From the IMG/VR virus record IMGVR_UViG_3300045970_000382, positions 62,001-126,000 of that record: a DNA stretch of 64,000 nucleotides; one strand, 5' to 3'. The translations under genes were made by a program, and so were the position numbers. The DNA is from a virus. Numbering within the stretch: position 1 is the stretch's first letter; each line of letters opens with the position of its first letter. This document shows, piece after piece, positions 3,601 to 45,342 of the stretch. The notes under the pieces are model-generated. The model did no database searches, was not told the origin of the DNA, and saw nothing but the letters and a program-made list of their open reading frames with translations.

Positions 3601-5247
3601 ATGCGTATATATTTCGGTTTTGGATGGATTCATACTCCAGATGTAATAGCCAGTTTTACAGGTGGACTTATTCAGAAAAGTTGGCATTTAGATTTAATTT
3701 GTAAAAGGGATTATTTAAATAATTTATATCTAGGTGGTGCTTTTTCTGAAAGTGGTAAAAATGTAGCTATTTATATTTTAAGTACAGGTATAACATTTAG
3801 TTCTAAAACTCTTAAAAATAGAGTTTTTCAACTTTATGGTAACGAAGATATTGATGGTCATGGAACTGCATTGGCTTCTATAGTGGCAGGTGTTCAGTAT
3901 GGTATTGCACGTTCTGCTCATGTTTATGGTCTTACTTTAGATTATGCTAATTTAAGAACTTCTTTAGATGCTGCTATTACTGTAGTTTTAAATCATATTG
4001 CTAATGGAACTAATAAAGCTGTAGTATTATTAGATGCTTTAGAAGTTCCTGAAGAGTCTAATAATTTTAGATTTACCAGTGATTCTGATAATGCTCTTAC
4101 TCTTAGTGTGCAAAGATTATTAGATTTAAACATAACGACAATTGCTTGTGCAAAATCAGGTTACTATAATAAAGGTAATTGGCTAGGAAATTTGAATTTG
4201 GATTTTCTTCCACCAATCAGTACTACAGACGTTATGTCTTTTGTTGGTTTTGATAATAGATTTATTCATTATCTTTATTGCAATTATGGAGCATCAGCTT
4301 TCTTATATGCTCCATGTTGTATGATTGTTGTAGAATCTTTACAAGGTATTTTGTATTATGATTCTCATGCAGATTATGCTTCAGCTATTGGTACAGGTAT
4401 TGCTGCATTATGCCTATCAAAAAATCCACATTGGGGGCATAAACAAGTAAAAGCCTTTCTTAAAAGAATTTGTAGAACTAAAAAAATAAATAACAGTAGG
4501 TCTTATGGTTATGATGCTATTGTTGGTATGGATAGAGATTTTGTGTTAGATAAACAAGGGCATATTATTGTTTATACTTATCCTAATTTTACAATGTTGA
4601 CCAGTGATTCTGTTAATGCTTATTTTATTAAAAATCTGTTAGAATTTAATTCAGATGCAGATCTTGGAGAATTTAATAGTAACCAAACTATCTCTATATC
4701 TTTTGATGTAATTTGTAAGTCTTTTTATGAAGAAAATAAACCTTATCTTTTAAAGATACTTTCTAGTGACTGTGCTTTTTTAAAAATAGATTCAGCTAAT
4801 AAACTCTATGGTTTTGTACCTGTTCATAAAACAGATATTTCATACAGTATTATTTTAGGAATAAGTAATGGTGTTAATGCTCTTTCAAAGACTTTGATTT
4901 TTAAAATAAAGACCACGGTGACTCAAAGTAAGGTAGCGGCTGTTAAAGTTATTGTAAAAGAAAAGAATTGGTTAGATTTTAATTTAGTATATAAAGAACA
5001 TGAGAAATATAATTTAGTTGAGACGCAATTTCATTTAAAGACTTCTATTACTAGACCTGTCAGTAGAGAAGTAGGATTTTATGACCATGTTTCAGGTCAT
5101 TATTCTAATTCAATAAAATCTTCTCCTAATACAGGGGATGCTTTCGTTGATACTAAGTCAGATAGATTGTATGCTATAATAGCAGAAGATAAAAAAGATA
5201 GATTAATATCTGATTCTAAAATAATAAGTAGGATAGATCCGCAATGA
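3601..5247 (+). CDS. Subtilase (proteinase K)-like virion protein, catalytically degenerate
   Basis: A 548-residue protein whose first 280 residues follow the proteinase K/S8 fold: WHLDLICKRDYL (28-39), VAIYILSTGI (55-64), DGHGTALASIVAG (85-97), ASAIGTGIAAL (260-270). The His (H87) and the Ser position (S261) are kept. The catalytic Asp of the DTG motif is Ser (S61), and the oxyanion Asn motif AAGN reads AKSG (184-187). The C-terminal half is unrecognised and beta-rich. It lies among tail genes and its stop overlaps the next start by 4 bases, so it is probably a structural protein built on a protease fold. Confidence 0.7.
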   Translation: MRIYFGFGWIHTPDVIASFTGGLIQKSWHLDLICKRDYLNNLYLGGAFSESGKNVAIYILSTGITFSSKTLKNRVFQLYGNEDIDGHGTALASIVAGVQYGIARSAHVYGLTLDYANLRTSLDAAITVVLNHIANGTNKAVVLLDALEVPEESNNFRFTSDSDNALTLSVQRLLDLNITTIACAKSGYYNKGNWLGNLNLDFLPPISTTDVMSFVGFDNRFIHYLYCNYGASAFLYAPCCMIVVESLQGILYYDSHADYASAIGTGIAALCLSKNPHWGHKQVKAFLKRICRTKKINNSRSYGYDAIVGMDRDFVLDKQGHIIVYTYPNFTMLTSDSVNAYFIKNLLEFNSDADLGEFNSNQTISISFDVICKSFYEENKPYLLKILSSDCAFLKIDSANKLYGFVPVHKTDISYSIILGISNGVNALSKTLIFKIKTTVTQSKVAAVKVIVKEKNWLDFNLVYKEHEKYNLVETQFHLKTSITRPVSREVGFYDHVSGHYSNSIKSSPNTGDAFVDTKSDRLYAIIAEDKKDRLISDSKIISRIDPQ

Positions 5248-13521: not shown

Positions 13522-13754
13522 CCCAACGTTATCCCTTAGTTTTGAACGGTGTGCAGATTCAGGAAATACAGGCGGGTGAATTTTTAGCTGTGCCAGAGTT
13601 GTTTGCAGACAATGGTGTGGTTTGCAATAAACAAACTATAGATACCAGCATCACATTCCCAGAAGCCACCAATGTTATTTCAGTGGGAACACTAACCATA
13701 AGCCCAGGTGTCACTGTCACTCTGGGTGCAGGCCAGAAATGGTCTATCATTTAA
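13518..13754 (+). CDS. Small hypothetical fibre-operon protein
   Basis: A 78-residue protein coupled to the preceding gene by ATGA. The sequence (LVLNGVQIQEIQAGEFLAVP...VGTLTISPGVTVTLGAGQKW) reads as two beta segments, the second resembling a short pectate-lyase-like or fibre-tip repeat. Family not recognised. Confidence 0.5.
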   Translation: MTQRYPLVLNGVQIQEIQAGEFLAVPELFADNGVVCNKQTIDTSITFPEATNVISVGTLTISPGVTVTLGAGQKWSII

Positions 13755-13767
13755 AGGCAGGTTTAAT

Positions 13768-14421
13768 ATGACCACTGTAGTAAAAACTAATAGTTCAGGA
13801 TATTCGGTCACACCAGGTGTGGATAATATCTTTGAATTTAAAACCAATGATATACTAGCTCTCACAATCAATGCTTCTCAAGTCGTTTCCTTAGTAAATC
13901 CATTACCTGTAAATTCGGGAGGTATTGGTTTTGCTGCTCCAGGTATGGTTGGTAACATTTTAAGAAGCAATGGCACTATCTGGGAATCAGTAGCACCTAC
14001 ACCTACTATTACCGATGACACTACCACCAATGTTCTTCAATATTTGGGTATGTCCAGAGCCACGTCAGGGGCTTGGATCACTGATTATATTTGTACCTCT
14101 AAGTTGAATTTTAATCCGTTTACTGGTGTATTAACTTCCTTTTTATTCAATGCTTCTTCTGACGTGACTCTGAAAGAAAATATTACACCTATTGTAAACG
14201 GTTTGTCTACTATAGAAAGTCTTAATGGTGTTAGTTTCAATTGGAAAGATAGTCAGTTACCATCCATAGGTTTAATTGCTCAGGAAGTTGAAAAGGTTTG
14301 TCCCATATTGGTATCGGAAGAAGATGGTTTAAAGTCTTTGAACTACAATGGCATCATTGGCTTGTTAGTAGAAGCGGTTAAGGAATTGTCGGCACGGGTT
14401 AAAGAATTGGAGAACGGATAA
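13768..14421 (+). CDS. Tail fibre with C-terminal S74 intramolecular chaperone
   Basis: About 217 residues from ATG 13768; an upstream in-frame start at 13708 would overlap the previous gene. The last 85 residues match the Peptidase_S74/endosialidase chaperone: SSDVTLKENITPI, then LSTIESLNGVSFNWK, then SIGLIAQEVEKVCPILV, then LNYNGIIGLLVEAVKELSAR. These domains trimerise and fold fibres, then usually cleave themselves off just before the conserved Ser-Asp. The body upstream is short, so this is a small trimeric fibre or spike. The end overlaps the first RCC1-like gene. Confidence 0.85.
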   Translation: MTTVVKTNSSGYSVTPGVDNIFEFKTNDILALTINASQVVSLVNPLPVNSGGIGFAAPGMVGNILRSNGTIWESVAPTPTITDDTTTNVLQYLGMSRATSGAWITDYICTSKLNFNPFTGVLTSFLFNASSDVTLKENITPIVNGLSTIESLNGVSFNWKDSQLPSIGLIAQEVEKVCPILVSEEDGLKSLNYNGIIGLLVEAVKELSARVKELENG

Positions 14422-15581
14422 TGGCCTCTAACTATACTGAAGATGACCCTGTTTTTGGCACTGTAGACTTGGATGACGAGTATATAACTGATGCTTGGTT
14501 GGTTGACAGATATGTGGGTAATACATTATGGTCTTTTGGATATAATAATAATGGACAATTAGGTAACGGTACAATTATTGATTATTCTAGCCCTATTCAG
14601 ATAGGTTCACTAACTAACTGGAAACAAGTTGCTTGTGAATATAGACATACTTTAGCTATTAAAACTGACGGCACTTTATGGGCTTGTGGATATAATGATT
14701 ATGGGCAATTAGGTAACGGTACAGCTATTTATTATTCTAGTCCTATTCAAGTAGGTAGCTTAACTAATTGGAAACAAGTTGCTGGTGGATATAAAAATAC
14801 TTTAGCTATTAAAACAGATAATACATTATGGGCTTGTGGATATAATTATTATGGACAATTAGGCAACGATACAACTATTGCTTATTCAAGTCCAATCCAA
14901 ATTGGTAGTCTGACTAACTGGAAACAAGTTGCTTGTGGGCGCTATCACACTGTAGCCATTAAGACAGACGGCACTTTATGGAGTTGTGGATATAATTATT
15001 ATGCTCAATTAGGTAATGGTACAGTTATTAAATATTCTAGTCCTATCCAAATTGGTTCATTGACTGATTGGAAACAAGTAGTTAGTGAGCAATACTCTAC
15101 ATTAGCTATTAAGACAAATGGAACTTTATGGGCTTTTGGATATAATGGTAATGGACAATTAGGCAATGGTACAACCATTAATTACTCTAGTCCTATTCAA
15201 ATTGGTTCATTGACTAATTGGAAACAAGTTGCTGGTGGATATTTTTTTACTGTAGCCATTAAGACAGATGGAACTTTATGGGGGTTTGGTACTAATTCTT
15301 ATGGACAATTAGGCAATAATACACGTATTCATTATTCCAGCCCCATTCAAGTAGGTAGCTTAACTGACTGGAAACAAGTTGCTTGTGGAAATAGTACTTT
15401 AGCTATTAAAACTGACGGCACTTTATGGGCTTTTGGATATAATGATTATGGACAGTTAGGTAATAGCACATCTATTAATTATTCCAGCCCTATCCAAATA
15501 AGCAGCCTGACTAATTGGAAACAAGTTGCTTGTGGAGATAAACATACTGTAGCAGTCACATTTAAAGATATAGGAGATTAA
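14421..15581 (+). CDS. RCC1-like seven-bladed beta-propeller fibre protein 1
   Basis: A 386-residue protein with an N-terminal anchor of about 37 residues (DLDDEYITDAWLVDRYVGN) followed by seven 50-residue RCC1/alpha-tubulin-suppressor-like repeats. The repeat frame is LWAFGYN..GQLGNGT..., then YSSPIQIGSL, then TNWKQVACG, then HTLAIKTDGT. Seven repeats would close one propeller. Variation concentrates after LWxxG, in the segment before YSSPIQ, and before the H/T-AIKTDGT strand. The position after S74 fibre genes suggests a receptor-binding head. Homologous genes lie at 16242 and 17435. Confidence 0.8.
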   Translation: MASNYTEDDPVFGTVDLDDEYITDAWLVDRYVGNTLWSFGYNNNGQLGNGTIIDYSSPIQIGSLTNWKQVACEYRHTLAIKTDGTLWACGYNDYGQLGNGTAIYYSSPIQVGSLTNWKQVAGGYKNTLAIKTDNTLWACGYNYYGQLGNDTTIAYSSPIQIGSLTNWKQVACGRYHTVAIKTDGTLWSCGYNYYAQLGNGTVIKYSSPIQIGSLTDWKQVVSEQYSTLAIKTNGTLWAFGYNGNGQLGNGTTINYSSPIQIGSLTNWKQVAGGYFFTVAIKTDGTLWGFGTNSYGQLGNNTRIHYSSPIQVGSLTDWKQVACGNSTLAIKTDGTLWAFGYNDYGQLGNSTSINYSSPIQISSLTNWKQVACGDKHTVAVTFKDIGD

Positions 15582-15583
15582 AA

Positions 15584-16240
15584 ATGCAATATTTACTGAC
15601 CGAAAACAAATCTGTACTGCTAGGCCCGATTGATTGGAAACCAAGATTCATACAATCAGAGCTAGATGATTTAGAGGTAGACTTTAAAATACCTATCGCA
15701 GAACCAGGTTATTTGGCTATTAATGAAACCTTGGAAATTATTCCGGTAATCACGTCTTATAAGCCAGCCGTGGATTTCAATTTTGAACATTTGGCAGGGC
15801 CATTCTATACCTTCACCAACAATGGGGCACATGAAGTCTATAGCTCCTATCGTTTGTCGTTAGACATTATCAAGGAGAATTTACATGCCATTGCTGCAAT
15901 GGCAAGGTTCAGAAAGGAAGAACTGGGTACTAAAACCACTATCCAGAACTTGGAAGTGACTGTAGACACCACCCGAAGTAGCAGAAACATCTTCGTACAA
16001 AAATACTTATTGATGAGTGAGTCTGATACTGTGTTGTTAAAGTTTGCTGAAGGTTGGTTTACGGTGACTAAAGCAGAATTAGGTCAAGTTGTGCAAGCGG
16101 GTAATAATTATATCCAAGCTCAATTCGATGCTGAAAAGGTTAAGTTGGGTGAGATAGATGCTCATGACACTTTTGAAGGTCTGCAAGCTGTAGTTATTAT
16201 ACCACTACCTGAAGTACCAGAAGCTCCTTTAGGAGGCTGA
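15584..16240 (+). CDS. DUF4376-like tail fibre accessory protein
   Basis: A 218-residue protein. Its C-terminal half matches the DUF4376 pattern seen near phage fibre genes: ARFRKEELGTKT, then LEVTVDTTRSSRNIFVQKYL, then LLKFAEGWFTVTKAELGQVV, then YIQAQFDAEK. It sits between two propeller genes. Members are often linked with tail-fibre assembly, so a chaperone or adaptor role for the propeller fibres is plausible but inferred. Its higher GC and codon use differ from the propeller genes. Confidence 0.65.
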   Translation: MQYLLTENKSVLLGPIDWKPRFIQSELDDLEVDFKIPIAEPGYLAINETLEIIPVITSYKPAVDFNFEHLAGPFYTFTNNGAHEVYSSYRLSLDIIKENLHAIAAMARFRKEELGTKTTIQNLEVTVDTTRSSRNIFVQKYLLMSESDTVLLKFAEGWFTVTKAELGQVVQAGNNYIQAQFDAEKVKLGEIDAHDTFEGLQAVVIIPLPEVPEAPLGG

Positions 16241-16241
16241 T

Positions 16242-17423
16242 ATGCTGACCGGATTTAAGACTATAGACCCTAATACAGGTAATGCTAATGATTTGGGTGA
16301 ACGGTATCTGACTAAAGACTATATGCTCGATGCTTATCCTAACTTGATTCCAGGTATGAACCCTAGTGGGTTGTGGAGTTTTGGATATAATGGTTTTGGG
16401 CAATTAGGTAACGATACACGTATTAATTATTCTTCTCCTATTCAAGTAGGTAGTCTGACTAACTGGAAACAAGTTACTTGTGGGCGTTACCATAGTGCAG
16501 CTATTAAAACAGACGGCACTTTATGGGCTTTTGGCGATAATTATAGTGGACAATTAGGTAACGGTACAACCATTAAATATTCCAGCCCTATTCAAATTGG
16601 TAGTCTGACTAATTGGAAACAAGTTGCTACTGGTTTTTATCATACTGTAGCCATTAAAACTGATGGAACTTTATGGGCTTATGGAAATAGTGGTTATGGA
16701 CAATTAGGCAACGGTACAACTAACAGTTATTCCAGTCCTATTCAAATTGGTAGCTTAACCAACTGGAAACAAGTTGCTTGTGGGTATAGATATTCTTTAG
16801 CTATTAAAACTGATGGCACTTTATGGGCTTTTGGCGATAATTATAGTGGACAATTAGGTAATGGTACAACCATTAAATATTCCAGCCCTATTCAAGTAGG
16901 TAGTTTAACTAATTGGAAACAAGTTGCTACTGGTTTTTATCATAGTGCAGCTATTAAAACAGATGGGACTTTATGGGGTTGTGGATATAATGGTTTTGGT
17001 CAATTAGGCAATGGTACAACTGACAGTTATTCCAGTCCAATTCAAATTGGTAGTTTGACTAATTGGAAACAAGTTGCTACTGGTTTTTATCATATTGTAG
17101 CCATTAAAACTGATGGGACTTTATGGAGTTTTGGTAAGAATTGGCAAGGACAATTAGGAAATAGTACAATTGACAATTATTCCAGTCCCATTCAAATTAG
17201 TAGCTTAACTAATTGGAAACAAGTTGCTTGTGGAATTGATAATACTGTAGCCATTAAAACAGATGGGACTTTATGGGGTTGTGGATATAATGGTTTTGGT
17301 CAATTAGGCAATGGTACAACTGACAGTTATTCCAGTCCCATTCAAATAGGAAACTTAACTAACTGGAAATTTATATATGCTGGTCGGAATAATAATTTTG
17401 TTATTTCAGCTTTATATTTATAG
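16242..17423 (+). CDS. RCC1-like seven-bladed beta-propeller fibre protein 2
   Basis: A 393-residue protein with an N-terminal segment of about 43 residues (NDLGERYLTKDYMLDAYPNL) similar in layout to that of propeller 1, then seven 50-residue RCC1 repeats. Blade signatures include LWSFGYNGFG, LWAFGDNYSG (twice), LWAYGNSGYG, LWGCGYNGFG (twice) and LWSFGKNWQG. Some blades are nearly identical to blades of the third gene. The ATG follows AGGAGGC at the end of the preceding gene. Confidence 0.8.
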   Translation: MLTGFKTIDPNTGNANDLGERYLTKDYMLDAYPNLIPGMNPSGLWSFGYNGFGQLGNDTRINYSSPIQVGSLTNWKQVTCGRYHSAAIKTDGTLWAFGDNYSGQLGNGTTIKYSSPIQIGSLTNWKQVATGFYHTVAIKTDGTLWAYGNSGYGQLGNGTTNSYSSPIQIGSLTNWKQVACGYRYSLAIKTDGTLWAFGDNYSGQLGNGTTIKYSSPIQVGSLTNWKQVATGFYHSAAIKTDGTLWGCGYNGFGQLGNGTTDSYSSPIQIGSLTNWKQVATGFYHIVAIKTDGTLWSFGKNWQGQLGNSTIDNYSSPIQISSLTNWKQVACGIDNTVAIKTDGTLWGCGYNGFGQLGNGTTDSYSSPIQIGNLTNWKFIYAGRNNNFVISALYL

Positions 17424-17434
17424 GTAGGTGAATT

Positions 17435-18568
17435 ATGGCAACGTCAGGTTTTCAAAGTAATTCAGCTACATTAGAAGGTATTTTTGTTAAAAAGAATATT
17501 TTCCTAGAATCTAATTTATGGGCTTTTGGCGATAATTATAGTGGACAATTAGGTAATGGTACAACCATTAAATATTCCAGCCCTATTCAAGTAGGTAGCT
17601 TAACTAATTGGAAACAAGTTGCTTGTAGATGTACATATACCTTAGCCATTAAAACAGACGGCACTTTATGGGCTTTTGGCGATAATTATAGTGGACAATT
17701 AGGTAATGGTACAACCATTAAATATTCCAGCCCTATTCAAATTGGTAGTCTGACTAATTGGAAACAAGTTGCTACTGGTTTTTATCATAGTGCAGCTATT
17801 AAAACAGATGGAACTTTATGGGGGTTTGGTACTAATTCTTATGGACAATTAGGCAATAATACAACTATTGATTACTCTAGTCCTATTCAAGTAGGCAGTT
17901 TAACGGATTGGAAACAAGTTGCTTGTGGATGTACATATACCTTAGCCATTAAAACAGACGGCACTTTATGGGCTTTTGGCGATAATTATAGTGGACAATT
18001 AGGTAACGGTACAACCATTGGTTACTCCAGCCCTATTCAAGTAGGTAGCTTAACTAATTGGAAACAAGTTGCTTGTAGAGATAAATATACTGTAGCTATT
18101 AAAACTGATGGCACTTTATGGGCTTGTGGATATAATGGTTTTGGGCAATTAGGTAACGATACACGTATTAATTATTCTTCTCCTATTCAAGTAGGTAGTC
18201 TGACTAACTGGAAACAAGTTGCTTGTGGGAGCTATCATACTTTAGCTATTAAAACAGACGGCACTTTATGGGCTTATGGAAATAGTGGTTATGGACAATT
18301 AGGCAACGGTACAACCATTAGATATTCCAGCCCTATTCAAATTGGTAGTCTGACTAATTGGAAACAAGTTGCTTGTGGATATAAACATACTGTAGCCATT
18401 AAGACGGATGGGGCATTATGGACTTGTGGATATAATGGTTTGGGACAATTAGGCAACGGTACAAGAATTAATTACTCCAGCCCCATTCAAATTGGTAGTT
18501 TAACTAACTGGAAACAAGTTGCTGGTGGGAGCTATCATACTTTAGCCATTAAGACAGATGACTTATAA
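17435..18568 (+). CDS. RCC1-like seven-bladed beta-propeller fibre protein 3
   Basis: A 377-residue protein with a short N-terminus of about 27 residues (MATSGFQSNSATLEGIFVKK) and seven RCC1 repeats: three LWAFGDNYSG blades, then LWGFGTNSYG, LWACGYNGFG, LWAYGNSGYG and LWTCGYNGLG types. It ends abruptly at AIKTDDL, with no C-terminal domain. Different N-termini on the three propellers suggest attachment at different sites or alternative use of one site. Confidence 0.8.
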   Translation: MATSGFQSNSATLEGIFVKKNIFLESNLWAFGDNYSGQLGNGTTIKYSSPIQVGSLTNWKQVACRCTYTLAIKTDGTLWAFGDNYSGQLGNGTTIKYSSPIQIGSLTNWKQVATGFYHSAAIKTDGTLWGFGTNSYGQLGNNTTIDYSSPIQVGSLTDWKQVACGCTYTLAIKTDGTLWAFGDNYSGQLGNGTTIGYSSPIQVGSLTNWKQVACRDKYTVAIKTDGTLWACGYNGFGQLGNDTRINYSSPIQVGSLTNWKQVACGSYHTLAIKTDGTLWAYGNSGYGQLGNGTTIRYSSPIQIGSLTNWKQVACGYKHTVAIKTDGALWTCGYNGLGQLGNGTRINYSSPIQIGSLTNWKQVAGGSYHTLAIKTDDL

Positions 18569-18577
18569 CAGGATTTT

Positions 18578-19351
18578 ATGAAAAAATACATATTCACGGC
18601 AGGACTACCTAGAGCTGGAACTACGCTCTTAGGTACTATTTTAAAACAAAACCCACGGTTTGAAGCCTCCATATCAGGGCCACTGGCACGGTTTGTCAGA
18701 GCTGTTATTCAAGAGTCATCTTCCCAAGGCGGATATCGCCATGAATGTCCACCTCCATTACGAAAACGGCTTATCCAAGGGCTGTTTGAGAATTATTACA
18801 GCGACCCCACCAAAGATGTTGCGTTCAATCATAATCGCGGTTGGGGTTTGTTGCTACCTACTATTAAAGACCTTTACCCCGATTGTAAGTTGATTCTATG
18901 TGTGAGAGACATGGGCTGGGTGTTGGATTCATTTGAAACTTTAGTAAGAAAGAATCCTTATTCGTTTTCCTCCATGTTCTCTTTAGATGAAAATATCAAT
19001 GTTTATACCCGTTGTGAAACTCTATTAAGACCAGATAGGACATTAGGTTTTGCTTACAATGCAGTTAAGCAAGCCATCACTTCCGAACATAATGATTCTG
19101 TTTTTATACTTGAATATGACAAGCTGGCACAAGTCCCAGAACTGATGCTTAAAGCCCTGTATAACTTTATTGAAGAACCTTACTTTGAGCATGATTTTAA
19201 TGATGTTGAGGCTTCTTATGATGAATTCGATGAAGATGTACAGTTACCCGGACTACATACTACTCGAAAAAAAGTGGAGTTTATTGAACGTAAGACTATA
19301 ATTCCACCTGATATATGGGAGCGTGTCAAAAACATGGAAGTGTGGAAATGA
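18578..19351 (+). CDS. Sulfotransferase family protein
   Basis: A 257-residue protein with the PAPS-binding P-loop GLPRAGTTLL at residues 9-18 and a second PAPS motif around LILCVRDMGWVLDSFETL (about 105-122). It matches the Sulfotransfer_3/Sulfotransfer_1 fold. It would transfer sulfate from PAPS to a hydroxyl of a sugar or peptide. An APS-kinase-like gene at 22741 could supply PAPS, and glycosyltransferases lie between the two. The ATG follows ACAGGATTTT and the stop overlaps the next start (ATGA). Confidence 0.8.
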   Translation: MKKYIFTAGLPRAGTTLLGTILKQNPRFEASISGPLARFVRAVIQESSSQGGYRHECPPPLRKRLIQGLFENYYSDPTKDVAFNHNRGWGLLLPTIKDLYPDCKLILCVRDMGWVLDSFETLVRKNPYSFSSMFSLDENINVYTRCETLLRPDRTLGFAYNAVKQAITSEHNDSVFILEYDKLAQVPELMLKALYNFIEEPYFEHDFNDVEASYDEFDEDVQLPGLHTTRKKVEFIERKTIIPPDIWERVKNMEVWK

Positions 19352-20079
19352 TTTACAATGTCATACCTGGAACGTTTAATAATTATGGAATAAGAAATGG
19401 AGATATGATTGCCATTATCAATTTCCTGCAATGGTTTAGAATGCAGGAAGACGACCCTACTATTAAACTCCACATAAAATCTAATGTCATAGTTAAAACT
19501 GACTATTGCAAACAGTTCTATAAATTGTTATGTGAACTGACCGACTGTTTTTCTCTGACAGAAGGCTATCAAAATCTACCTTATCATGAACTGATGCTTT
19601 GGGACTTCAGGGACATTTGTGGGGATGTAGTATCCATTCATAATCCTCATATCCAAAAGAAAAAGATTGTAGTGTTTCCGGTCTATGATTCAGATTACCA
19701 TGTTTATAGGAATTGGAATATAAGTCTACTTGAATCCATACTAGAAGAGTACACTGAAAAATATCCCGATTATGAAAAACTGCTCTGTGTTAAAGACCTA
19801 CCTGATTTAGATATAAAAATGTCAGGGTTTTCCATCAGCACCCACTTTATGCAAAACATAAAACATATTATGGAAGCGGAGATATTCATTGGTGGTGATA
19901 CCGGGGTTTCACATTTCGCTTCAGCACTTAACCTTGGTCCTAAAGAACTAGTGTACTGTTACAATGGCAGGAGCACGGTACATACTTTGCCTTTTCATTT
20001 ATTAAGTGGTAAAGGCACGTTAAGAAAATACTGGTTAAATTGCTATAAAACAACCTATAAAGGACAGCTAGTGTTATGA
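19348..20079 (+). CDS. GT9 (heptosyltransferase)-like glycosyltransferase
   Basis: A 243-residue protein starting at the ATGA overlap (19348). The C-terminal half has the GT9-type donor-site text FIGGDTGVSHFASALNLG followed by YCYNGRSTVHTLPF. The N-terminal half is a degenerate Rossmann domain (GDMIAIINFLQWFRM). GT9 enzymes move heptose or other sugars; in phages the acceptor is unknown. It belongs to the glycan island. Confidence 0.65.
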   Translation: MIYNVIPGTFNNYGIRNGDMIAIINFLQWFRMQEDDPTIKLHIKSNVIVKTDYCKQFYKLLCELTDCFSLTEGYQNLPYHELMLWDFRDICGDVVSIHNPHIQKKKIVVFPVYDSDYHVYRNWNISLLESILEEYTEKYPDYEKLLCVKDLPDLDIKMSGFSISTHFMQNIKHIMEAEIFIGGDTGVSHFASALNLGPKELVYCYNGRSTVHTLPFHLLSGKGTLRKYWLNCYKTTYKGQLVL

Positions 20080-20663
20080 AGATATTGTTAGGTAGCGGTT
20101 ATAAAAAAGAAGAAGGTTTTGTTACTATAGATGACGACCCTATAGTGAATCCAGATTATCTGATAAATCTGGATGATGTTAATATAAAACTACCTTTTGC
20201 GGATAATTCAGTTAGTGAAATCAGGGCTTATCATATTTTGGAGCATATTGGTGAAGGGTTTATACCTCTAATTCAAGAGATGTATAGAATATCTGAACAT
20301 AATGCAATATTGGATATTAAAGTACCCCACCATAACCACGAAGTCTATTATGGAGATCCTACCCATAAACGACCTATCACAGTCAATGGCATGAAATTAT
20401 TTGACCAAGACTACAATCGGGAACATATAGCGGAGCATAATGCCAGTTCGGGATTAGGTATCCGGTATAAGGTTGATTTCAGAATGCTCTGGTATAATTT
20501 TGATTATGACCCTTTTTATATGGATATGATTAAAGGGATTGAACAACGCCAAGCAGCAGGAACTTTATCCAAAGAAGAAGAATTTGCTTTTATGCGTTTA
20601 ATGCGTGAGGCTAATAATGTGGCAATGAACACTAACATTAAGATGCTGGCTATCAAGGAGTAA
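20076..20663 (+). CDS. SAM-dependent class I methyltransferase-like protein
   Basis: A 195-residue protein with the truncated Rossmann pattern of phage Methyltransf_11-like proteins: MKILLGSGYKKEEGFVTIDD at the start, LPFADNSVSEIRAYHILEHI (about 46-65) and VPHHNHEVYYGDPTHKRPIT. The LGSGY motif would bind SAM. The overlap of 4 bases with the GT9-like gene couples the two, so methylation of a sugar or related surface component is plausible. The target is unknown. Confidence 0.65.
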   Translation: MKILLGSGYKKEEGFVTIDDDPIVNPDYLINLDDVNIKLPFADNSVSEIRAYHILEHIGEGFIPLIQEMYRISEHNAILDIKVPHHNHEVYYGDPTHKRPITVNGMKLFDQDYNREHIAEHNASSGLGIRYKVDFRMLWYNFDYDPFYMDMIKGIEQRQAAGTLSKEEEFAFMRLMREANNVAMNTNIKMLAIKE

Positions 20664-20667
20664 TGCA

Positions 20668-22065
20668 GTGGCACAACCTATAAAGTATGACAGTAATGAC
20701 CCATTATCTTTTATTATAGAATATTTAGAAAAAGCTAATGAGGATGAACTAGCTAATAAGGTACTAGATGTATTTGCCAGAAACTCCAATCAATTGGAGC
20801 AGTTTAACTTGTTGGCTAAACTGTATTTGGATTTACGGAACGGTGACAAGGCCGAAGAGTTTTCCCTAAAAGTGTTGTCCATGGTGGCTGACCCGCAAGC
20901 TCAATATAATGCTAGGTCTAACATCGCCAAGATGTATAACAACATGAACAAACCTGATAAGTCTTTACAGCACTCCAGCCTGAATAGGATTATTACTCCA
21001 GATGACCCAGATACCCTGTTAGAATCAGTATTTTCGTTATACTTATTAGGTCAAAAAGACGATGCTGAAAAGATACTGAGAGATTTGAAAGCTAGGGAAG
21101 ATACTTTAAGCGAACACCATCAAACTATTGTTGATTTTAACTTGGGTACGTATGACATGGAGCAAGGTCACTTCCTAAAAGGGTTGGCTGGGTTTTTAAT
21201 TAATATCAAAAAATTAGGCTTATGGTTCTCCAACAGGGAACTACCCTACAAGTATTGGAATGGCGGTATATATCCGGGTAGAACTTTAATCTTGTTTATG
21301 GAAGGCGGAGGCATTGGTGACGAGTTCATATCTGTGAGACACATGGATGACCTTAAAAGACTTGGGTTTAGACCTATCTATTATACCTTTAGACCGGACT
21401 TATATAAGATTTTTAACCGTTGTGGCTATGAAACGGTATTAAATCTTGATGATGTACCTAAAGATTCCTTATGGACTTACGCCATGCAAGTGCCATTATG
21501 GATAAAGAAGACTCCTGAAACTATTATCAGGGAAAATTATCTATATCCATCTGATGAAGCCAGATCTAAATGGCAGTTTATAAAAGATTCTAACAAGTTT
21601 AAGATTGGTGTACGTTGGCAAGGTAATGCTAAAAATGAACGTGACTTGCATCGTAAGGTTCCTCTTGACGGGATTATGGACACTTTAAAATCAGTATATA
21701 AGAACAAAGATGTAGAATATTATTCGTTACAGATTGGTGATGGTGAGGAAGAGATTGTTAATTACCTTGAATTGATAAACGTATCTGATAAAATAGAATC
21801 TTATGATGATACTTTAGCATTATTGGAAAACTTAGATTTGGTTGTATCTTCGTGTACTTCGGTACTCCATGCCTCAGCTATAGTGGGTACTGAAACCATT
21901 GGTTTGATTCCAATATCAGCTTATTTCACATGGTTAAGTCCCACTCCTAATAGACCTATTTATACCAGCATCTGGTATGGCGACAATTTAAGAATTTTTA
22001 AACAGACTACTATCAATAGTTGGGAAACTCCTTTTAATCAGATAAAGGAATATCTTAATGGATGA
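20668..22065 (+). CDS. TPR-domain glycosyltransferase-like protein
   Basis: A 465-residue protein from a GTG start with GGAG upstream. The first 180 residues are helical repeats with TPR character (LAKLYLDLRNGDKAEEFSLK; LFSVFSLYLLGQKDDAEKIL-type pairs). The C-terminal part is GT-B/GT9-like: FKIGVRWQGN, SLQIGDGEEE, then VVSSCTSVLHASAIVGTETI and the WYGDNLRIF segment. The layout resembles bacterial TPR-glycosyltransferases of the OGT-like group. It likely glycosylates a phage or host product. Confidence 0.7.
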   Translation: MAQPIKYDSNDPLSFIIEYLEKANEDELANKVLDVFARNSNQLEQFNLLAKLYLDLRNGDKAEEFSLKVLSMVADPQAQYNARSNIAKMYNNMNKPDKSLQHSSLNRIITPDDPDTLLESVFSLYLLGQKDDAEKILRDLKAREDTLSEHHQTIVDFNLGTYDMEQGHFLKGLAGFLINIKKLGLWFSNRELPYKYWNGGIYPGRTLILFMEGGGIGDEFISVRHMDDLKRLGFRPIYYTFRPDLYKIFNRCGYETVLNLDDVPKDSLWTYAMQVPLWIKKTPETIIRENYLYPSDEARSKWQFIKDSNKFKIGVRWQGNAKNERDLHRKVPLDGIMDTLKSVYKNKDVEYYSLQIGDGEEEIVNYLELINVSDKIESYDDTLALLENLDLVVSSCTSVLHASAIVGTETIGLIPISAYFTWLSPTPNRPIYTSIWYGDNLRIFKQTTINSWETPFNQIKEYLNG

Positions 22066-22744
22066 CTTTTATACTTTTATTGTATTATCCACTATCAATA
22101 CTGATACAGGTGTTCTTGACAGATTGGTTAGATTTGAGCAGACTATTAACACTTTAAATTCAATAAGGTTGAAAGTACCCAATGCAAAGATAATCTTTTT
22201 AGATAACTCTATAGAACCCTTGACACCTGAACAACTTAAACAGATATGGGCTAAAGTAGATATTTGTAAGTATGCTTTCCAAACTTTACCCAACCTTTAT
22301 TTTAATCAGAGAGGTCTGAAAGGTGATGGGGAAATTTGTATGATGTACGAAGCCATGCAAATACTTAAAATTTCTGAATTGCTTGGAAAACGTGTTTTTA
22401 AGTTATCTGGCAGATATTTTTTAAACGAGCATTTTAATATAGATGCTTATAATGATCTACAAGGTAAATATGTAGCCAAGATTAACGCTTGGGACATTAC
22501 TAAAGATAATTGGGTTACTAGAGAACAAGTTTATTATTTTGAAACAAGATTGTGGTCATTCTGTGGTACATTATTTGATGAATTTTATAATCAACTACCT
22601 GTCATTTTTAATTACATGATGAATGTGGATAATAATCTTGAGAAAGCTTATTTAAAATTATTAGATCCAGATAAGATAGTACCTATGGATGTTATCGGAG
22701 TTAGTGGTTATTCGGCTGATACTGGGGAGATAAAGATAGAATGA
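22058..22744 (+). CDS. Putative glycosyltransferase-like protein
   Basis: A 228-residue protein overlapping both neighbours by 4-8 bases. It starts with a GT-A-like strand pair (YTFIVLSTINTDT; AKIIFLDNSIEPL) and has KLSGRYFLNEHFNIDAY, a motif that also occurs in phage and bacterial glycan-synthesis proteins. No DxD motif is evident. Assigned to the glycan island by context and the weak fold resemblance. Confidence 0.45.
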   Translation: MDDFYTFIVLSTINTDTGVLDRLVRFEQTINTLNSIRLKVPNAKIIFLDNSIEPLTPEQLKQIWAKVDICKYAFQTLPNLYFNQRGLKGDGEICMMYEAMQILKISELLGKRVFKLSGRYFLNEHFNIDAYNDLQGKYVAKINAWDITKDNWVTREQVYYFETRLWSFCGTLFDEFYNQLPVIFNYMMNVDNNLEKAYLKLLDPDKIVPMDVIGVSGYSADTGEIKIE

Positions 22745-26720: not shown

Positions 26721-26898
26721 TAATTTTTTCAATTAGTGTCATTTCAAGATCATCAAAATAAATCTTTAGATTACTTTCATTAATAACTATTTTTAAATTG
26801 TGATACTTCCCATCATTAAAAATCCAACGTTCTATAGTTTCTGAAACTGTATAAGAATAGGGTTCCAAATCTTCGTTAGTATCTTTAATCATTTTCAT
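26713..26898 (-). CDS. Small hypothetical protein (61 aa)
   Basis: Sixty-one residues, acidic at the start (DTNEDLEPYSYTVSETIERW) with a beta-rich second half (NLKIVINESNLKIYFDDLEM). Its start overlaps the end of the first AP2-type homing-like gene by 14 bases. No family recognised. Confidence 0.5.
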   Translation of the reverse strand: MKMIKDTNEDLEPYSYTVSETIERWIFNDGKYHNLKIVINESNLKIYFDDLEMTLIEKINV

Positions 26899-27622
26899 CT
26901 ACCACATAATTCATCATAGCTTCATAAATATCTGGATCTATGACATCTTTATAGAAATTAGCCAGTCTTTTAGCTTCAGCTTCTTTAGCAGGTTTATAAA
27001 CTAGATATGCTTCTTGTTCTGTTTTGTAACAACCAAGATATTTTTGTCTTCCTTCAATATTACATACAGCCATATATGGATTTATTTTACAATCTGGATA
27101 ATAAGTAACTCCAATACAACATTCACCTCTACCAGCATCACATTTTACTAAAAAGGAATTTACTTCTCGTGGTACTAGTCGGCATGTTTCTGGTGAATAA
27201 ATTTTATTGCCTTTAATAAGGCAATCTTTATCTATAAACCAATTTAAATCTGAGCCTACCATTAATAAATAATCATGAGCAAAGTTTTGAAAATTCTTCC
27301 ATCTTTCACAAACAGTGCAGTTTCTGTAAGTAGGATGTAAATTTTTATAATCTTCGTTATAACATCTTCTCAACATGTCACTCCAAACCATATAAATTCT
27401 TCTATGCGTTTTTTGGGAATAAATTCCAATTCCAATAAAACCAATCCCACAAACATTAGGATGGTTTGGATTCTTAACATTACCATTTCTTAAATTACCC
27501 GCGGTGCAATACGTTTCAGATCCATTTTCAAATATAACTCTTACGTTGCGAGCAGAATTATATTCTAAAACAGTGCAAAACCCAGATCTAGTTGTTTCAA
27601 AAACATCGCCTACTTTTATCAT
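26885..27622 (-). CDS. AP2/HNH-like homing-type protein, copy 1
   Basis: A 245-residue protein of a three-part family that has seven copies in this window. It has an N-terminal SH3/KOW-like beta domain (IKVGDVFETTRSGFCTVLEY), a central nuclease-like domain (MVWSDMLRRCY...TVCERWKNFQNFAHDY...NKIYSPETCRLVPREVN) and a C-terminal AP2-type DNA-binding domain (IGVTYYPD...GCYKTEQEAYLVYK). The SPETC..VP..N motif resembles HNH_3, but I do not see a standard catalytic His. Such genes are often annotated as HNH or homing endonucleases in phages. Its ATG overlaps the SNF2 helicase stop (ATGA). Confidence 0.75.
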   Translation of the reverse strand: MIKVGDVFETTRSGFCTVLEYNSARNVRVIFENGSETYCTAGNLRNGNVKNPNHPNVCGIGFIGIGIYSQKTHRRIYMVWSDMLRRCYNEDYKNLHPTYRNCTVCERWKNFQNFAHDYLLMVGSDLNWFIDKDCLIKGNKIYSPETCRLVPREVNSFLVKCDAGRGECCIGVTYYPDCKINPYMAVCNIEGRQKYLGCYKTEQEAYLVYKPAKEAEAKRLANFYKDVIDPDIYEAMMNYVVDEND

Positions 27623-31478: not shown

Positions 31479-32516
31479 TTATTCACCTTTAAAAAGTTTT
31501 AAACCTATATCAAGTAAACTACCTGATATTTTTTCAGTCTGTGCAAATTTTAATAATACATCTTTTGATGATAAAGATTTTATATTTGATTTTATATAAT
31601 CCTTTATTTCATCCGATGCTTTTGTTTCAACTATTTTTTCCATACGGATATCGTGGAGTTCAATAGCATTATCTTTACAGTAATTAATAGTCTGTGCTTT
31701 TAATTCTGCCCACTTATGAATAAGATTTCTATCTAACAATAATGTTATTTTAACCTGATCTTCTTTTTTTAATTTCTTTAAGTCAACTAACAAATCATCA
31801 AAAGAATTAACTTCCTTTTTTATATGAGGTCTTTTTATTGTTTTAATATCTATAAATCTTAATTTACCATCTTCAATAACAGACATTCGTGGCTGGTAAT
31901 CATCCCCGAATGACACGGGGTGCTGGGTGCCAGGATAATTTACTTTTCGTAATGTTTGAGGAACGTGAATATCACCACTTACTATCTTAGCTGATACATT
32001 TTTAAAAAAGTTTGGATCAAGACCACAGTTGAGTTCATGAAAATTAGATACTTTTGATCCAATAATAGATTGGTGTATGAACAAAAATTTTAAATTTGGA
32101 TCATTTATTATTGGTAGCCACTCTTCCCATTCAATTTCAGCAACTCTACTATGTGGAAGAAATAAAAACTGATCTCTTTTCCAATATGTTGGTTTATCTA
32201 TAAATGTTATGTTTTCGTACTTGGATACGAAACGTAAGAAACAGTGATTTCGGTCTACTGTATAGTCGTGGTTGCCTCCCAGTATGGATATAGGGCAGTA
32301 CTTGTCTCTAATTTCAAGGAACGAGTTGACAGTTCTATTAACCAACTGGGACTTATGCTTATCCTTCCTATCTAAAACATCCCCAAGGTGTAGGAAAAGA
32401 TCATATCCACCTTTATCTAATTCAGCCTTAGCGAAATCAAATACCTTCCAACGATACTCATTACTTGGATTATCGTCGAGGTGCGTATCATTGATAATAA
32501 GAATTTTTCTAGTCAT
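31479..32516 (-). CDS. SbcD/Mre11-like metallophosphatase nuclease
   Basis: A 345-residue protein with phosphoesterase motifs INDTHLDD (8-15), HLGDVLDRKDKH (43-54), GGNHDYTVD (80-88), FIHQSI and SGDIHVPQ. It corresponds to T4 gp47 and bacterial SbcD, nucleases that process DNA ends with a Rad50-type ATPase. No SbcC/gp46 homologue is in the window. It overlaps the upstream AP2-type gene by 8 bases. Confidence 0.85.
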   Translation of the reverse strand: MTRKILIINDTHLDDNPSNEYRWKVFDFAKAELDKGGYDLFLHLGDVLDRKDKHKSQLVNRTVNSFLEIRDKYCPISILGGNHDYTVDRNHCFLRFVSKYENITFIDKPTYWKRDQFLFLPHSRVAEIEWEEWLPIINDPNLKFLFIHQSIIGSKVSNFHELNCGLDPNFFKNVSAKIVSGDIHVPQTLRKVNYPGTQHPVSFGDDYQPRMSVIEDGKLRFIDIKTIKRPHIKKEVNSFDDLLVDLKKLKKEDQVKITLLLDRNLIHKWAELKAQTINYCKDNAIELHDIRMEKIVETKASDEIKDYIKSNIKSLSSKDVLLKFAQTEKISGSLLDIGLKLFKGE

Positions 32517-33252
32517 TAATATCCACCTTATAATTTATCATTGCTGATAGTATATCTGGATCTATTGTATCCTTAAATACATTTGCTAGTCTTTTAGCTT
32601 CAGCCTCTTTAGCGGCTTTATAAGCTAAATAAGCTTCTTGTTGTGTTTTAAAATAACCAAGATGTTCTTGTTTTCCTTTAATCCTGCAACTAGCCCTATA
32701 TGGTGTTGATGTACCTTCATAATAATTGACTCCAATACAACACTCACCTCTACTAGCATTACTTTTTTCTAAAAAATTATTCACTTCTTGTGGTACTAAA
32801 CGACATGTTTCTGGTGAATAGATTTTATTACCTTTAATAAGCCAATCTTTGTCCAGTTGGTAATTTAAATCAGAACCAAACATGAGTAAGTAATCATGAG
32901 CGAAGTTTTGAAAACACAACCATCTTTCACAAACAGTACAATCTTTATAAGTAAGTTGTTTTTTCTGTGTAAATTCTGAATAACATCTTCGTAACATAGC
33001 AAGCCAACAATTATAAATTCTTAGATGCGACGTACAAGAATAATTTCCAATTCCAATAAATCCAATTCCATAAAATTTAAGACTTGGGTATTTAACATAA
33101 CCATTTCTTAAAGCACCAGCTTCACAAGTCGTTTCAGCCCCATCTTCAAATCTGACTCTTACATTGTGAGCATTTATATACTCTATAACAATGCAAGAGC
33201 CAGATTTGTTTGTTTTAAAGGCGTCACCAACTTTAATAGAAGGTAAAAGCAT
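32509..33252 (-). CDS. AP2/HNH-like homing-type protein, copy 2
   Basis: A 247-residue member with all three domains: IKVGDAFKTNKSGSCIVIEY, NCWLAMLRRCYSEF...NKIYSPETCRLVPQEVN, and a C-terminal IGVNYYEGTSTPYRASC...GYFKTQQEAYLAYK. It is closest in wording to copies 1 and 7. It sits precisely between the DUF932-like gene (TAATG overlap) and the SbcD/Mre11-like gene (8-base overlap), so it was inserted without disturbing either reading frame. Confidence 0.75.
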   Translation of the reverse strand: MLLPSIKVGDAFKTNKSGSCIVIEYINAHNVRVRFEDGAETTCEAGALRNGYVKYPSLKFYGIGFIGIGNYSCTSHLRIYNCWLAMLRRCYSEFTQKKQLTYKDCTVCERWLCFQNFAHDYLLMFGSDLNYQLDKDWLIKGNKIYSPETCRLVPQEVNNFLEKSNASRGECCIGVNYYEGTSTPYRASCRIKGKQEHLGYFKTQQEAYLAYKAAKEAEAKRLANVFKDTIDPDILSAMINYKVDIND

Positions 33253-35873: not shown

Positions 35874-36932
35874 TTATTTGTTGCGGTTACGGAGTCCTGC
35901 TAATCTGGAAGATGTTGATGGAGGTTTTGGTTTTTCTTCCTCTTCCTCTTCCTCTTCTTCTTGTTCTGGTTCAGGTTCCTTTATTACTGGTTTTTCAGGT
36001 TTAGCTCTTCCAGTTTTAGGTTTAAACATTTTTTTGAGTTCATCTGCAATATCAATAACCAAGTCATCCAGAGTTTCGTATTCACTGGGATCTATTTCAG
36101 AACCCATAGTTTCTATTACTTCTATTAATTCATTTTCATCCATGTTTTGTAAATCTTTTTCAGTTAAAGATTCAAGATCAATTTTTTTAGCTTTCTTTTT
36201 CTCAGGAATTTCATTAGTTTTAACTCCACTGGCAGGAGCTCCACTAAAAACAGCGGTCAGATAATCATAATCGTAGAAGATTAAATTTTCAGGTAATGAA
36301 TTTTTACCGCTGATTTTGCTCCATATTTCTTCTTCAAAATCTTCAATTGCAGAAGGTCGTCTAGCAACTTTAATTGCATATTTGGTAGTCAATGAAGTTC
36401 CTTCTCTGACAACATCCAAATCATAACCTTCTTCAGGACAATCTACGGGTAATACTTCTCGTGTATCATCATCAACGGCTTGCATCATAATAGTTTTATC
36501 TAATGATGCGGGCATTGACCAAGCTTTTAAAACAGGTTTGGATTTGCCTTCCCGAACTAAAATATAGACCAGTACACGGCTAGCAGGTTTTAATGTTTTA
36601 GCATAATCAGGATCGTCAACAGCTACACGTTGTCTTTCCTCACAGATTGGGCAACGTAATTTGGTTTCTCCAGTATGAGGATTAACTGTATTGAAAGGAC
36701 AGATGTAGGCATCATTATTTGGCCCTACTTGATAGTGGACGAAAATTCGGTAGCCATAATGATCTGCATTTTCCCAACCTGGAGGTAAAATTCTTACACG
36801 ATTTGTTCCTTCCGCTGGTTTGAATAAGGGTATGCTTGCAGTTAGATAACCGTCACGAATACCACTGTCTGCTTCACTGATCTGTGATTTGGTTTCTTCG
36901 TAGGTACGTTTTCTGTATGTAAATTTAGCCAT
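35874..36932 (-). CDS. Single-stranded DNA-binding protein (gp32-like)
   Basis: A 352-residue protein. The N-terminal core includes a zinc-binding set of Cys residues (YICPFNTVN, then LRCPICEERQ, about 95-125), as in T4 gp32-type SSBs. The C-terminal quarter is an acidic tail (an EEEEEEEE run near 330) followed by a short basic end SRLAGLRNRNK. The acidic tail usually recruits replication partners. The gene has its own leader of about 110 bases and a terminator, fitting the high amounts of SSB needed. Confidence 0.85.
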   Translation of the reverse strand: MAKFTYRKRTYEETKSQISEADSGIRDGYLTASIPLFKPAEGTNRVRILPPGWENADHYGYRIFVHYQVGPNNDAYICPFNTVNPHTGETKLRCPICEERQRVAVDDPDYAKTLKPASRVLVYILVREGKSKPVLKAWSMPASLDKTIMMQAVDDDTREVLPVDCPEEGYDLDVVREGTSLTTKYAIKVARRPSAIEDFEEEIWSKISGKNSLPENLIFYDYDYLTAVFSGAPASGVKTNEIPEKKKAKKIDLESLTEKDLQNMDENELIEVIETMGSEIDPSEYETLDDLVIDIADELKKMFKPKTGRAKPEKPVIKEPEPEQEEEEEEEEEKPKPPSTSSRLAGLRNRNK

Positions 36933-41307: not shown

Positions 41308-42022
41308 CGGTGCGATTCATTAGAGCTATATAAGCTCTTGGATCTATAGTATCTTTATAAACATTGGCTAGTCTTTTAAATTCAGCCTCTTTAGCTACTT
41401 TATAAACTTGTCTAGCTTCTTTTTCTGTTTTATAAGATCCAAGACGTTTTAATCTTCCTTCAATATGACATCTAGCCACATACGGATTTGGCTTACCTTC
41501 AACATAAGTAACTCCGAGGATACGTTCACCTCTACTAGAATCACCTTTTTCTAAAACATAATTTATTTGTGGTGGAACTAAACAACATGTTTCCGGTGAA
41601 TATATCTTATTTCCTTTAATAAGCCAATCTTTGTCCAGTTGGTAATTTAAATCTGAACCCACCATTTGTAAATAATCATGGCAAAAGTTTTGAAAATTAA
41701 ACCATCTTTCATCTACAGTACAACCACGATAAGTAGGCCGTTTTAATTGAGCAGCTTCGTGATAACATCTTTTTAACATATAAATCCAACAATAATAAAT
41801 TCTTGGATGTGATGTACAAGAATACTCCCCAATACCAATAAATCCAATACCAAAAAATTTAAGTTTTGGGTTTTTAACTCTACCATTTCTTAACTGACCC
41901 GCTTGACAAATTTTTTCAGTTCCATCTTCAAATCTGACTCTTACGTTAATAGCAGAATTATACTTTATAACAGTACAAAAACCAGATGTATTCGTTTCAA
42001 ACCTATCTCCAACTTTAATCAT
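41291..42022 (-). CDS. AP2/HNH-like homing-type protein, copy 3
   Basis: A 243-residue copy with IKVGDRFETNTSGFCTVIKY, YCWIYMLKRCYHEA...NKIYSPETCCLVPPQIN and a C-terminal LGVTYVEGKPNPYVARC...GSYKTEKEARQVYK. It differs from the others in RGERILGV and in ending MNRTVDIGD. It is placed between the beta clamp (15-base gap) and the polymerase, whose start it overlaps by 17 bases. Confidence 0.75.
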   Translation of the reverse strand: MIKVGDRFETNTSGFCTVIKYNSAINVRVRFEDGTEKICQAGQLRNGRVKNPKLKFFGIGFIGIGEYSCTSHPRIYYCWIYMLKRCYHEAAQLKRPTYRGCTVDERWFNFQNFCHDYLQMVGSDLNYQLDKDWLIKGNKIYSPETCCLVPPQINYVLEKGDSSRGERILGVTYVEGKPNPYVARCHIEGRLKRLGSYKTEKEARQVYKVAKEAEFKRLANVYKDTIDPRAYIALMNRTVDIGD

Positions 42023-44742: not shown

Positions 44743-45342
44743 TCAGCACGTTGTTTTAGTTGAATTTTTACAGGTTTTATCGTGTACTTCATAATTCATT
44801 AAAACAATATAAACTCTTGAATCAAGATTCTTTTTATACATACGAGTTACTCTTTTTATTTCAGCTTCTTTAGCATTTTTATAAGCTAAAAATGCCAATT
44901 CAATTGTTGGAAAATGACCTAATGATTTATTCTTTTTATTAATGTAACAAAGAGCCCTATAAGGGCTCTTTGTTCTATTTGACCAAGATACTCCAATTGG
45001 AAGATTATTATTTTTACTCTTATAACATGTCATAATGCAGTTCAGTTCTTGGGGCAGTAATACACACGTATCTTTACTATAGATTTTATTATCTTTAATA
45101 AGAATATCTTTGTCAAGTTGCCAATTTAAATTAGAACCATTCATAGCTAGATAATCATGACAAAAATTTTGAAAATTATGCCATCTTTCATCTACTGTAC
45201 AACCAATGTAACTCTGTTGTTTATCTTGAACCTTTTTAACATAACATCTAAAGAGCATTGTACTCCAAGTAAAATAGATTCGTCTATGAGACACCGACGA
45301 ATATTGGCCTTCTCCAAGAATACCTACACCATGTGCTGCCAT
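44743..45342 (-). CDS. AP2/HNH-like homing-type protein, copy 4 (N-terminally shortened)
   Basis: A 199-residue copy that lacks the SH3-like N-terminal domain and starts near the GVGILGEGQYSS segment. The central domain (YFTWSTMLFRCYVKK...NKIYSKDTCVLLPQELN) and the AP2-like end (IGVSWSNRTKSPYRALC...GHFPTIELAFLAYK) remain, and the C-terminus carries an extra tail KTCKNSTKTTC. It diverges most from the others. It is either a decaying copy or a shorter functional form. It is 3 bases from the ligase gene. Confidence 0.7.
   Translation of the reverse strand: MAAHGVGILGEGQYSSVSHRRIYFTWSTMLFRCYVKKVQDKQQSYIGCTVDERWHNFQNFCHDYLAMNGSNLNWQLDKDILIKDNKIYSKDTCVLLPQELNCIMTCYKSKNNNLPIGVSWSNRTKSPYRALCYINKKNKSLGHFPTIELAFLAYKNAKEAEIKRVTRMYKKNLDSRVYIVLMNYEVHDKTCKNSTKTTC

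What the first reader, a model, noticed from the sequence alone, without database searches (positions are those of the whole stretch)
14421..18568. Three successive seven-bladed RCC1-like propellers built from 21 near-identical 150-bp repeats
Each gene has exactly seven repeats, enough to close one propeller. Variable positions cluster at fixed spots in each repeat, while the frame is nearly invariant even at the DNA level. Identical blades recur within and between genes. This looks like a diversity generator: recombination among repeats could shuffle blades and alter receptor specificity without a reverse transcriptase. They follow S74 fibre genes and a DUF4376 protein.
Basis: partly seen in the sequence, partly recalled or inferred. 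Interest (0 to 1): 0.8.

Follow-up and report, generated by a model that had tools for sequence, protein, structure and literature searches.

The report
Shuffled seven-bladed phage tail propellers
A large uncultured bacteriophage carries three neighbouring genes for seven-bladed RCC1 propeller proteins, most likely tail-fibre adhesins, whose blades copy pieces of DNA from one another so that the probable binding face changes while the seven-blade ring stays intact.

Summary
Three ORFs (14421-15581, 16242-17423, 17435-18568) each encode exactly seven ~50-aa RCC1 repeats: 21 blades, and no others in this 156-kb IMG/VR phage record. One protein models as a closed seven-bladed propeller (pLDDT 94). 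Variable codons fall in loops that strand order puts on one face. The scaffold is conserved as protein, not as DNA (pN 0.07, pS 0.48). No two blades are identical, but stretches up to 94 nt are shared within and between genes more than site-shuffling allows (0/400). In relatives, 134 of 152 complete genes have seven blades. Orthologues with anchors >=94% identical have propellers 74-86% identical, blade positions scrambled, and threefold higher synonymous divergence. One in-register patch transfer was caught between two phages otherwise identical over 16.6 kb. In-register gene conversion is thus well supported; a fast programmed generator is not: near-identical genomes show no excess of array changes (4 of 18 events; arrays are 23% of sequence), and no reverse transcriptase, integrase or resolvase was found. 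The tail-adhesin role is inferred from gene order, an isolate with similar order, and published virion proteomes of distant homologues; receptor binding is untested.

The parts
14421..15581 (+). Propeller gene A: N-terminal anchor (35 aa) and seven RCC1 blades starting at 14526, 14676, 14826, 14976, 15126, 15276, 15423
16242..17423 (+). Propeller gene B: anchor (43 aa) and seven blades starting at 16371 + 150n
17435..18568 (+). Propeller gene C: anchor (27 aa) and seven blades starting at 17516 + 150n; AlphaFold2 model pLDDT 94.3
15584..16240 (+). DUF4376 / tail-fibre-like protein (phrog_10508) between genes A and B
13768..14421 (+). Fibre protein with C-terminal Peptidase_S74 chaperone domain, directly before gene A (listed ORF 13708-14421; ATG at 13768)
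16575..16580 (+). Site in blade B2 where a near-twin genome carries the blade-C4 allele (AAATAT to GGTTAC) at its contig end
34760..35818 (-). RecA/UvsX-like recombinase, candidate for the conversion step
35874..36932 (-). gp32-like single-strand DNA-binding protein
18578..19351 (+). Sulfotransferase family protein; a sulfotransferase follows an RCC1 gene in the isolate S-SRM01 too

Best explanation
The three genes most likely encode tail-fibre-tip adhesins. A short N-terminal anchor docks each protein on the tail structure (inferred); the rest is a closed seven-bladed RCC1 propeller (predicted). Loops at blade positions 6-19 and 38-40 lie on one face and carry most variable residues; this is probably the binding face (inferred). 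The blades, close enough for homologous recombination, exchange short in-register tracts of about 20-90 nt within a gene and between the three genes. This patchwork conversion, probably by the phage's own RecA-like recombinase (inferred), plus exchange with related phages, reshuffles loop alleles among fixed positions. Selection keeps seven blades and the scaffold sequence and favours change on the variable face. It is an evolutionary process, not a fast programmed switch.
For: Structure: 7 blades in each window gene; in relatives 134 of 152 complete non-redundant ORFs have 7, others 4x14, 4x21, 1x28; AlphaFold2 pLDDT 94.3; best PDB folds UVR8, HERC2, RCC1. One face: higher entropy in face-A than face-B loops in the window and all 18 relatives; window variable codons pN 0.395 > pS 0.272, frame pN 0.068 < pS 0.482. 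Conversion: shared-run test 42,368 vs 20,976 (sd 2,289), 0/400, codon-block shuffle also 0/400; identity equal within (0.782) and between genes (0.776); all 21 window blades match best inside their own genome. Caught event: L081 vs L082 differ at 3 of 16,627 bases, all in 17 nt of one blade, all matching the blade two places downstream (68-nt exact match, offset exactly 300 nt), one N-to-D change at codon 19. Scrambling: 8 orthologue pairs with anchors 94-99.5% identical have propellers at 0.79, same-position 0.792 vs other-position 0.780, pS 0.37 vs 0.12 in anchors. Tail role: fibre-gene neighbours; isolate S-SRM01 has RCC1 genes after baseplate-wedge and long-tail-fibre genes and one before a sulfotransferase; three RCC1 proteins found in virions of coliphage W70 (PMC11370258) and one in GAP32 (PMC5259590). 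RecA-like and gp32-like genes present.
Against: No direct evidence of receptor binding, or that these proteins are in this virion. In coliphages A73 and 121Q the RCC1 genes do not sit next to annotated tail genes, so the tail reading may not hold for all phage RCC1 proteins. Near-identical genomes show no excess of array changes. Only one conversion event was seen cleanly; the window-twin event is at a contig end. For the window alone the one-face contrast is borderline with the hand alignment (p = 0.050; 0.006 with the family alignment); the face assignment is from strand order, without coordinates. Choosing pairs by high anchor identity biases anchor pS downward, though non-array flanks give the same picture.
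Confidence: 0.66

Rival explanations
1. They are DNA-organising proteins of the capsid interior ('DNA condensation' proteins), as the RCC1 name and the phAPEC6 authors suggest.
For: RCC1 proteins occur in virions (PMC11370258; PMC5259590); the phAPEC6 paper proposes DNA ordering because eukaryotic RCC1 contacts nucleosomes (PMC7247149); PHROGs files them under nucleotide metabolism.
Against: In this lineage they sit among tail-fibre genes; variation is concentrated on one face with pN above pS there, unexpected for a DNA-binding surface; the closest folds by score (UVR8, HERC domains) are protein-interaction domains (functional reading from general knowledge).
Confidence: 0.1
2. Ordinary recent amplification: blades were duplicated lately and drift neutrally, as in highly repetitive propellers of all lineages.
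For: Recent blade amplification is well documented, RCC1/BLIP-II group included (PMC9218822); median blade identity in these genes is 72-76% aa.
Against: Frame codons carry high synonymous divergence (pS 0.48), so the blades are not young copies; the seven-blade count recurs across many phages; orthologous anchors persist while blade positions are scrambled; variation is face-specific.
Confidence: 0.1
3. A dedicated diversity-generating system (retroelement, invertase or site-specific recombinase) shuffles the blades at high rate.
For: Module-wise reuse of blade parts and variable codons at fixed positions.
Against: No RVT_1, phage integrase or resolvase match in the 156-kb record; no elevated array change among near-identical genomes.
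Confidence: 0.04
4. Propellers diversify mainly by horizontal exchange of whole propellers or gene blocks between related phages, with little intragenomic conversion.
For: In L031 vs L042 genes 1 and 2 differ strongly as a block while gene 3 and the upstream 1.6 kb are nearly identical; a tight cluster of seven SNPs just upstream of an array gene separates L100 from L101.
Against: All 21 window blades match best inside their own genome; L031 and L042 gene-1/2 blades mostly share longer exact stretches with own blades than with the sister genome; the L082 patch has its donor in the same gene.
Confidence: 0.1

Closest known systems
RCC1-repeat (RCC1/BLIP-II) seven-bladed beta-propellers, e.g. 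UVR8, HERC2 RLD, RCC1, BLIP-II
   Same: Same repeat family (PF00415) and seven-bladed fold; TM-score about 0.85 to UVR8/HERC2
   Different: Blades are far more alike (72-76% aa medians), exchange DNA with each other, lie in three neighbouring phage genes with short anchors, and vary on one face
Highly repetitive, recently amplified propellers (Pereira & Lupas 2022, PMC9218822)
   Same: Near-repetitive blades within one propeller; RCC1/BLIP-II group and viral members are in their set
   Different: Their blade numbers form a continuum around family medians; here complete genes have 7 with few exceptions and fused genes mostly multiples of 7; inter-gene conversion and a variable face are shown here
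Phage RCC1 / 'DNA condensation' proteins of coliphages W70, GAP32, 121Q, phAPEC6
   Same: RCC1-repeat proteins, often in several copies (3 adjacent in W70, 11 in phAPEC6), found in virions of W70 and GAP32
   Different: Interpreted there as possible DNA organisers or left open; here the tail-fibre locus and one-face variation point to adhesion
Phage T4 gp37 tail-fibre adhesin, host range changed by duplication of a small repeated domain (recalled from memory; seen here only as a citation)
   Same: Recombination among repeats in a tail-tip adhesin alters specificity
   Different: Different fold; copy number changes there, whereas here blade number is fixed and alleles are reshuffled
Diversity-generating retroelements
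   Same: Variation confined to loop residues on a conserved scaffold of a likely receptor-binding protein
   Different: No reverse transcriptase; templates are sister blades

Membership tests
RCC1 repeat family (PF00415) | Sequence match above the Pfam gathering score in tandem repeats | tested here: met
   7 stretches per protein, E 2e-86 to 8e-93
RCC1-like domain (seven-bladed propeller) | Seven blades closing a ring | tested here: met
   7 repeats per gene; AlphaFold2 model pLDDT 94.3, pTM 0.90; PDB matches TM about 0.85. Predicted, not solved
Highly repetitive propellers (PMC9218822) | Median blade identity above 60% | tested here: met
   Medians 0.74, 0.72, 0.76
Diversity-generating retroelement target | Reverse transcriptase in the genome | tested here: not met
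   No RVT_1 match at E <= 1 in the 156-kb record, which may be incomplete
Phage tail-fibre adhesin | Located in the tail-fibre gene cluster | tested here: met
   Upstream ORFs match tail and tail-fibre PHROGs; similar order in isolate S-SRM01
Phage tail-fibre adhesin | Protein is part of the virion and binds host receptor | not testable with these tools
   Literature support only for distant homologues in virions
Concerted evolution by gene conversion | Copies more alike within a genome than orthologous copies between genomes, with templated patches | tested here: met
Hypervariable (rapid) locus | Excess of changes among near-identical genomes | tested here: not met
   4 of 18 events in arrays, 23% of sequence, p = 0.62

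The most novel reading that the evidence does not exclude
Phage RCC1 proteins at large are a class of modular receptor-binding propellers: fixed seven-bladed scaffolds whose specificity face is diversified by in-register gene conversion among 7-21 or more sister blades, a repertoire mechanism that needs no reverse transcriptase and no special recombinase. The common 'DNA condensation protein' annotation would then be wrong across jumbo phages, coliphages and cyanophages.
Probability: 0.4. Interest if true: 0.8.

Novelty: new variant of a known kind. Interest (0 to 1): 0.62.

Why it matters
It gives a testable function for a widespread group of phage proteins now annotated as DNA-condensation or nucleotide-metabolism proteins, and suggests how a phage can vary an adhesin surface by ordinary recombination while a structural rule, closing a ring of seven, holds the number of parts constant. 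The seven-blade rule, the scrambled blade order behind conserved anchors, and a caught patch transfer make it checkable in cultured freshwater cyanophages such as S-SRM01.

Tried and rejected
2) Rate excess in arrays: an informal look at selected pairs suggested one; a first systematic count still included same-contig duplicates; the corrected count over 25 groups of distinct contigs showed none, so I withdrew it. 3) Blade gain/loss between close relatives: L100 vs L101-L106 (7 vs 6 blades, exact 150-bp difference) and L151 vs L152 (5 vs 7 blades, 303-bp difference across a 114-nt identity) look like recombination but are just what short-read assembly collapse would give; not used as evidence. 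4) The caught L082 event is harder to explain that way: the patch joins to acceptor sequence 4 nt away, a junction absent from both parent blades. 5) Exceptions to the seven rule (9 of 152): L013, L068 and L099 have gaps of about one blade where the HMM probably missed one, L062 a blade split by an insertion, L012 a truncated version of the L013 gene, L019 the possible collapse above; L110 (4 and 8) and L026 (27) are unexplained. 6) A BLIP-II interface comparison was considered, but the paper held does not list the interface residues, so it stayed a lead. 7) Ostreococcus virus paper: its 'RCC1' hits shown are strain numbers. 9) Host: not identified; one Prosthecobacter MAG contig encodes a 40% relative, not evidence of host.

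Full report
WHAT IS THERE. The window is bases 62001-126000 of a 156,223-bp IMG/VR virus record. At 14421-18568 lie three genes, A (14421-15581), B (16242-17423) and C (17435-18568), with a DUF4376/tail-fibre-like gene (15584-16240) between A and B. Each protein is a short N-terminal anchor (35, 43, 27 aa) followed by exactly seven repeats of 50 aa (one of 49). Pfam RCC1 matches all seven repeats in each, and these 21 are the only RCC1 hits in the record. An S74-chaperone fibre gene directly precedes A; further upstream ORFs match tail PHROGs; a sulfotransferase-family gene follows C.

Blades are 78% identical at DNA level on average, 97% at most over the compared 132 nt, and no two are identical. 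The scaffold is conserved by selection on the protein: at 34 frame codons pN is 0.068 and pS 0.482; at 16 variable codons pN is 0.395 and pS 0.272. Identical sub-blade modules do recur, e.g. 94 nt between B1 and C5, 83 nt between B4 and C1, 48 nt between A6 and C3.

STRUCTURE. AlphaFold2 on an alignment of 70 phage propellers gives protein C a mean pLDDT of 94.3. Strands fall at blade positions 20-25, 32-37, 41-46 and 1-5 of the next blade. In a four-stranded antiparallel blade the loops 6-19 and 38-40 are then on one face and 26-31 and 47-50 on the other; this is a topological inference, as no coordinates were available. Loops of the first face are the more variable in the window and in all 18 relatives tested (loops-only permutation p between 0.001 and 0.08). 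Closest solved folds are UVR8, HERC2 and RCC1 domains.

RULE OF SEVEN. Among 152 complete, non-redundant RCC1 ORFs from related viral contigs, 134 have 7 detected blades, 4 have 14, 4 have 21 and 1 has 28; 9 deviate, most with a likely technical reason. With more loci the counts are 173 with 7, 8 with 14, 8 with 21, 2 with 28 and 15 others. Many contigs carry three such genes.

BLADES EXCHANGE DNA. A GENECONV-like permutation of the 21 blades gives a larger total of shared runs than any of 400 shuffles, with single sites or whole codons shuffled. Identity does not depend on distance: adjacent 0.779, within gene 0.782, between genes 0.776. Each window blade is most similar to another blade of its own genome (21/21), although anchors show orthology to genes of other phages. 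In eight orthologue pairs with anchors 94-99.5% identical the propellers average 0.79, and blades at the same position (0.792) are hardly more alike than at different positions (0.780); synonymous divergence is 0.37 in propellers against 0.12 in anchors. Pairs were chosen by anchor identity, which biases the anchor value down, but non-array flanks agree (L031/L042 97.05% over 13.7 kb, L040/L062 96.8% over 3.7 kb, L058/L062 95.3%).

EVENTS CAUGHT. Contigs 3300020558_000217 (L081) and 3300042469_000137 (L082) are identical over 16,627 bases except for three SNPs within 17 nt of one blade. All three convert it to the sequence of the blade two positions downstream, in register (68-nt exact match, offset 300 nt); the one amino-acid change (N to D) is at variable position 19. 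In the window's near-twin (3300045971_000438) the only four differences over the overlapping 20 kb are a patch in blade B2 equal to blade C4, again at position 19; it lies at a contig end, whose other end carries the window allele, so it may be a population variant or an assembly effect.

A NEGATIVE RESULT. Over 25 groups of near-identical contigs from different assemblies, 4 of 18 difference events are in arrays, which make up 23% of the sequence (p = 0.62). Arrays therefore do not change faster than the rest on this scale, and many are identical across samples. I found no reverse transcriptase, integrase or resolvase, while a RecA-like recombinase and a gp32-like protein are encoded. The process is best described as conversion by general recombination plus selection, acting over longer times and probably together with exchange between phages.

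FUNCTION. The isolate Synechococcus phage S-SRM01 (Kyanoviridae) has two RCC1 genes just after baseplate-wedge and long-tail-fibre genes and a third directly before a sulfotransferase. RCC1 proteins were found by mass spectrometry in virions of coliphage W70 (three proteins, phrog_4219, one of the families the window proteins match; PMC11370258) and GAP32 (PMC5259590). The phAPEC6 authors proposed DNA ordering (PMC7247149). Gene order plus one-face diversification favour adhesion in this lineage; binding is not shown. In coliphages A73 and 121Q the RCC1 genes are not beside annotated tail genes, so extending this to all phage RCC1 proteins is a hypothesis.

NOVELTY. RCC1 proteins in phages and amplified propellers are known (PMC9218822). 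In the searches of the held library I found no paper describing phage RCC1 proteins as blade-shuffling adhesins; the library lacks most subscription journals.

Noticed in passing
26885-27622, 32509-33252, 41291-42022, 44743-45342, 46544-47278, 52063-52797, 62602-63336 (-): At least seven paralogous ~200-247-aa ORFs that look like AP2/HNH-type mobile endonucleases scattered through the replication genes; the one tested has no Pfam hit at 1e-3.
   Followed up: partly
54803-57952 and 52794-53927 (-): Helicase ORF with an intein splicing domain, and a downstream ORF that begins with an intein C-terminal part.
   Followed up: partly
62055-62281: Two exact 110-bp tandem copies (100% identity), possibly a real duplication or an assembly effect.
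   Followed up: no
18578-22744: Sulfotransferase, methyltransferase-like and further transferase-like genes behind the propeller genes; S-SRM01 has a sulfotransferase and glycosyltransferase behind its RCC1 genes.
   Followed up: partly
3601-5247: Subtilase-like (Peptidase_S8) protein in the tail gene region, weak Pfam match.
   Followed up: no
L110:5355-7348: Two adjacent RCC1 genes with 4 and 8 blades, exceptions to the seven-blade rule that I could not explain.
   Followed up: no
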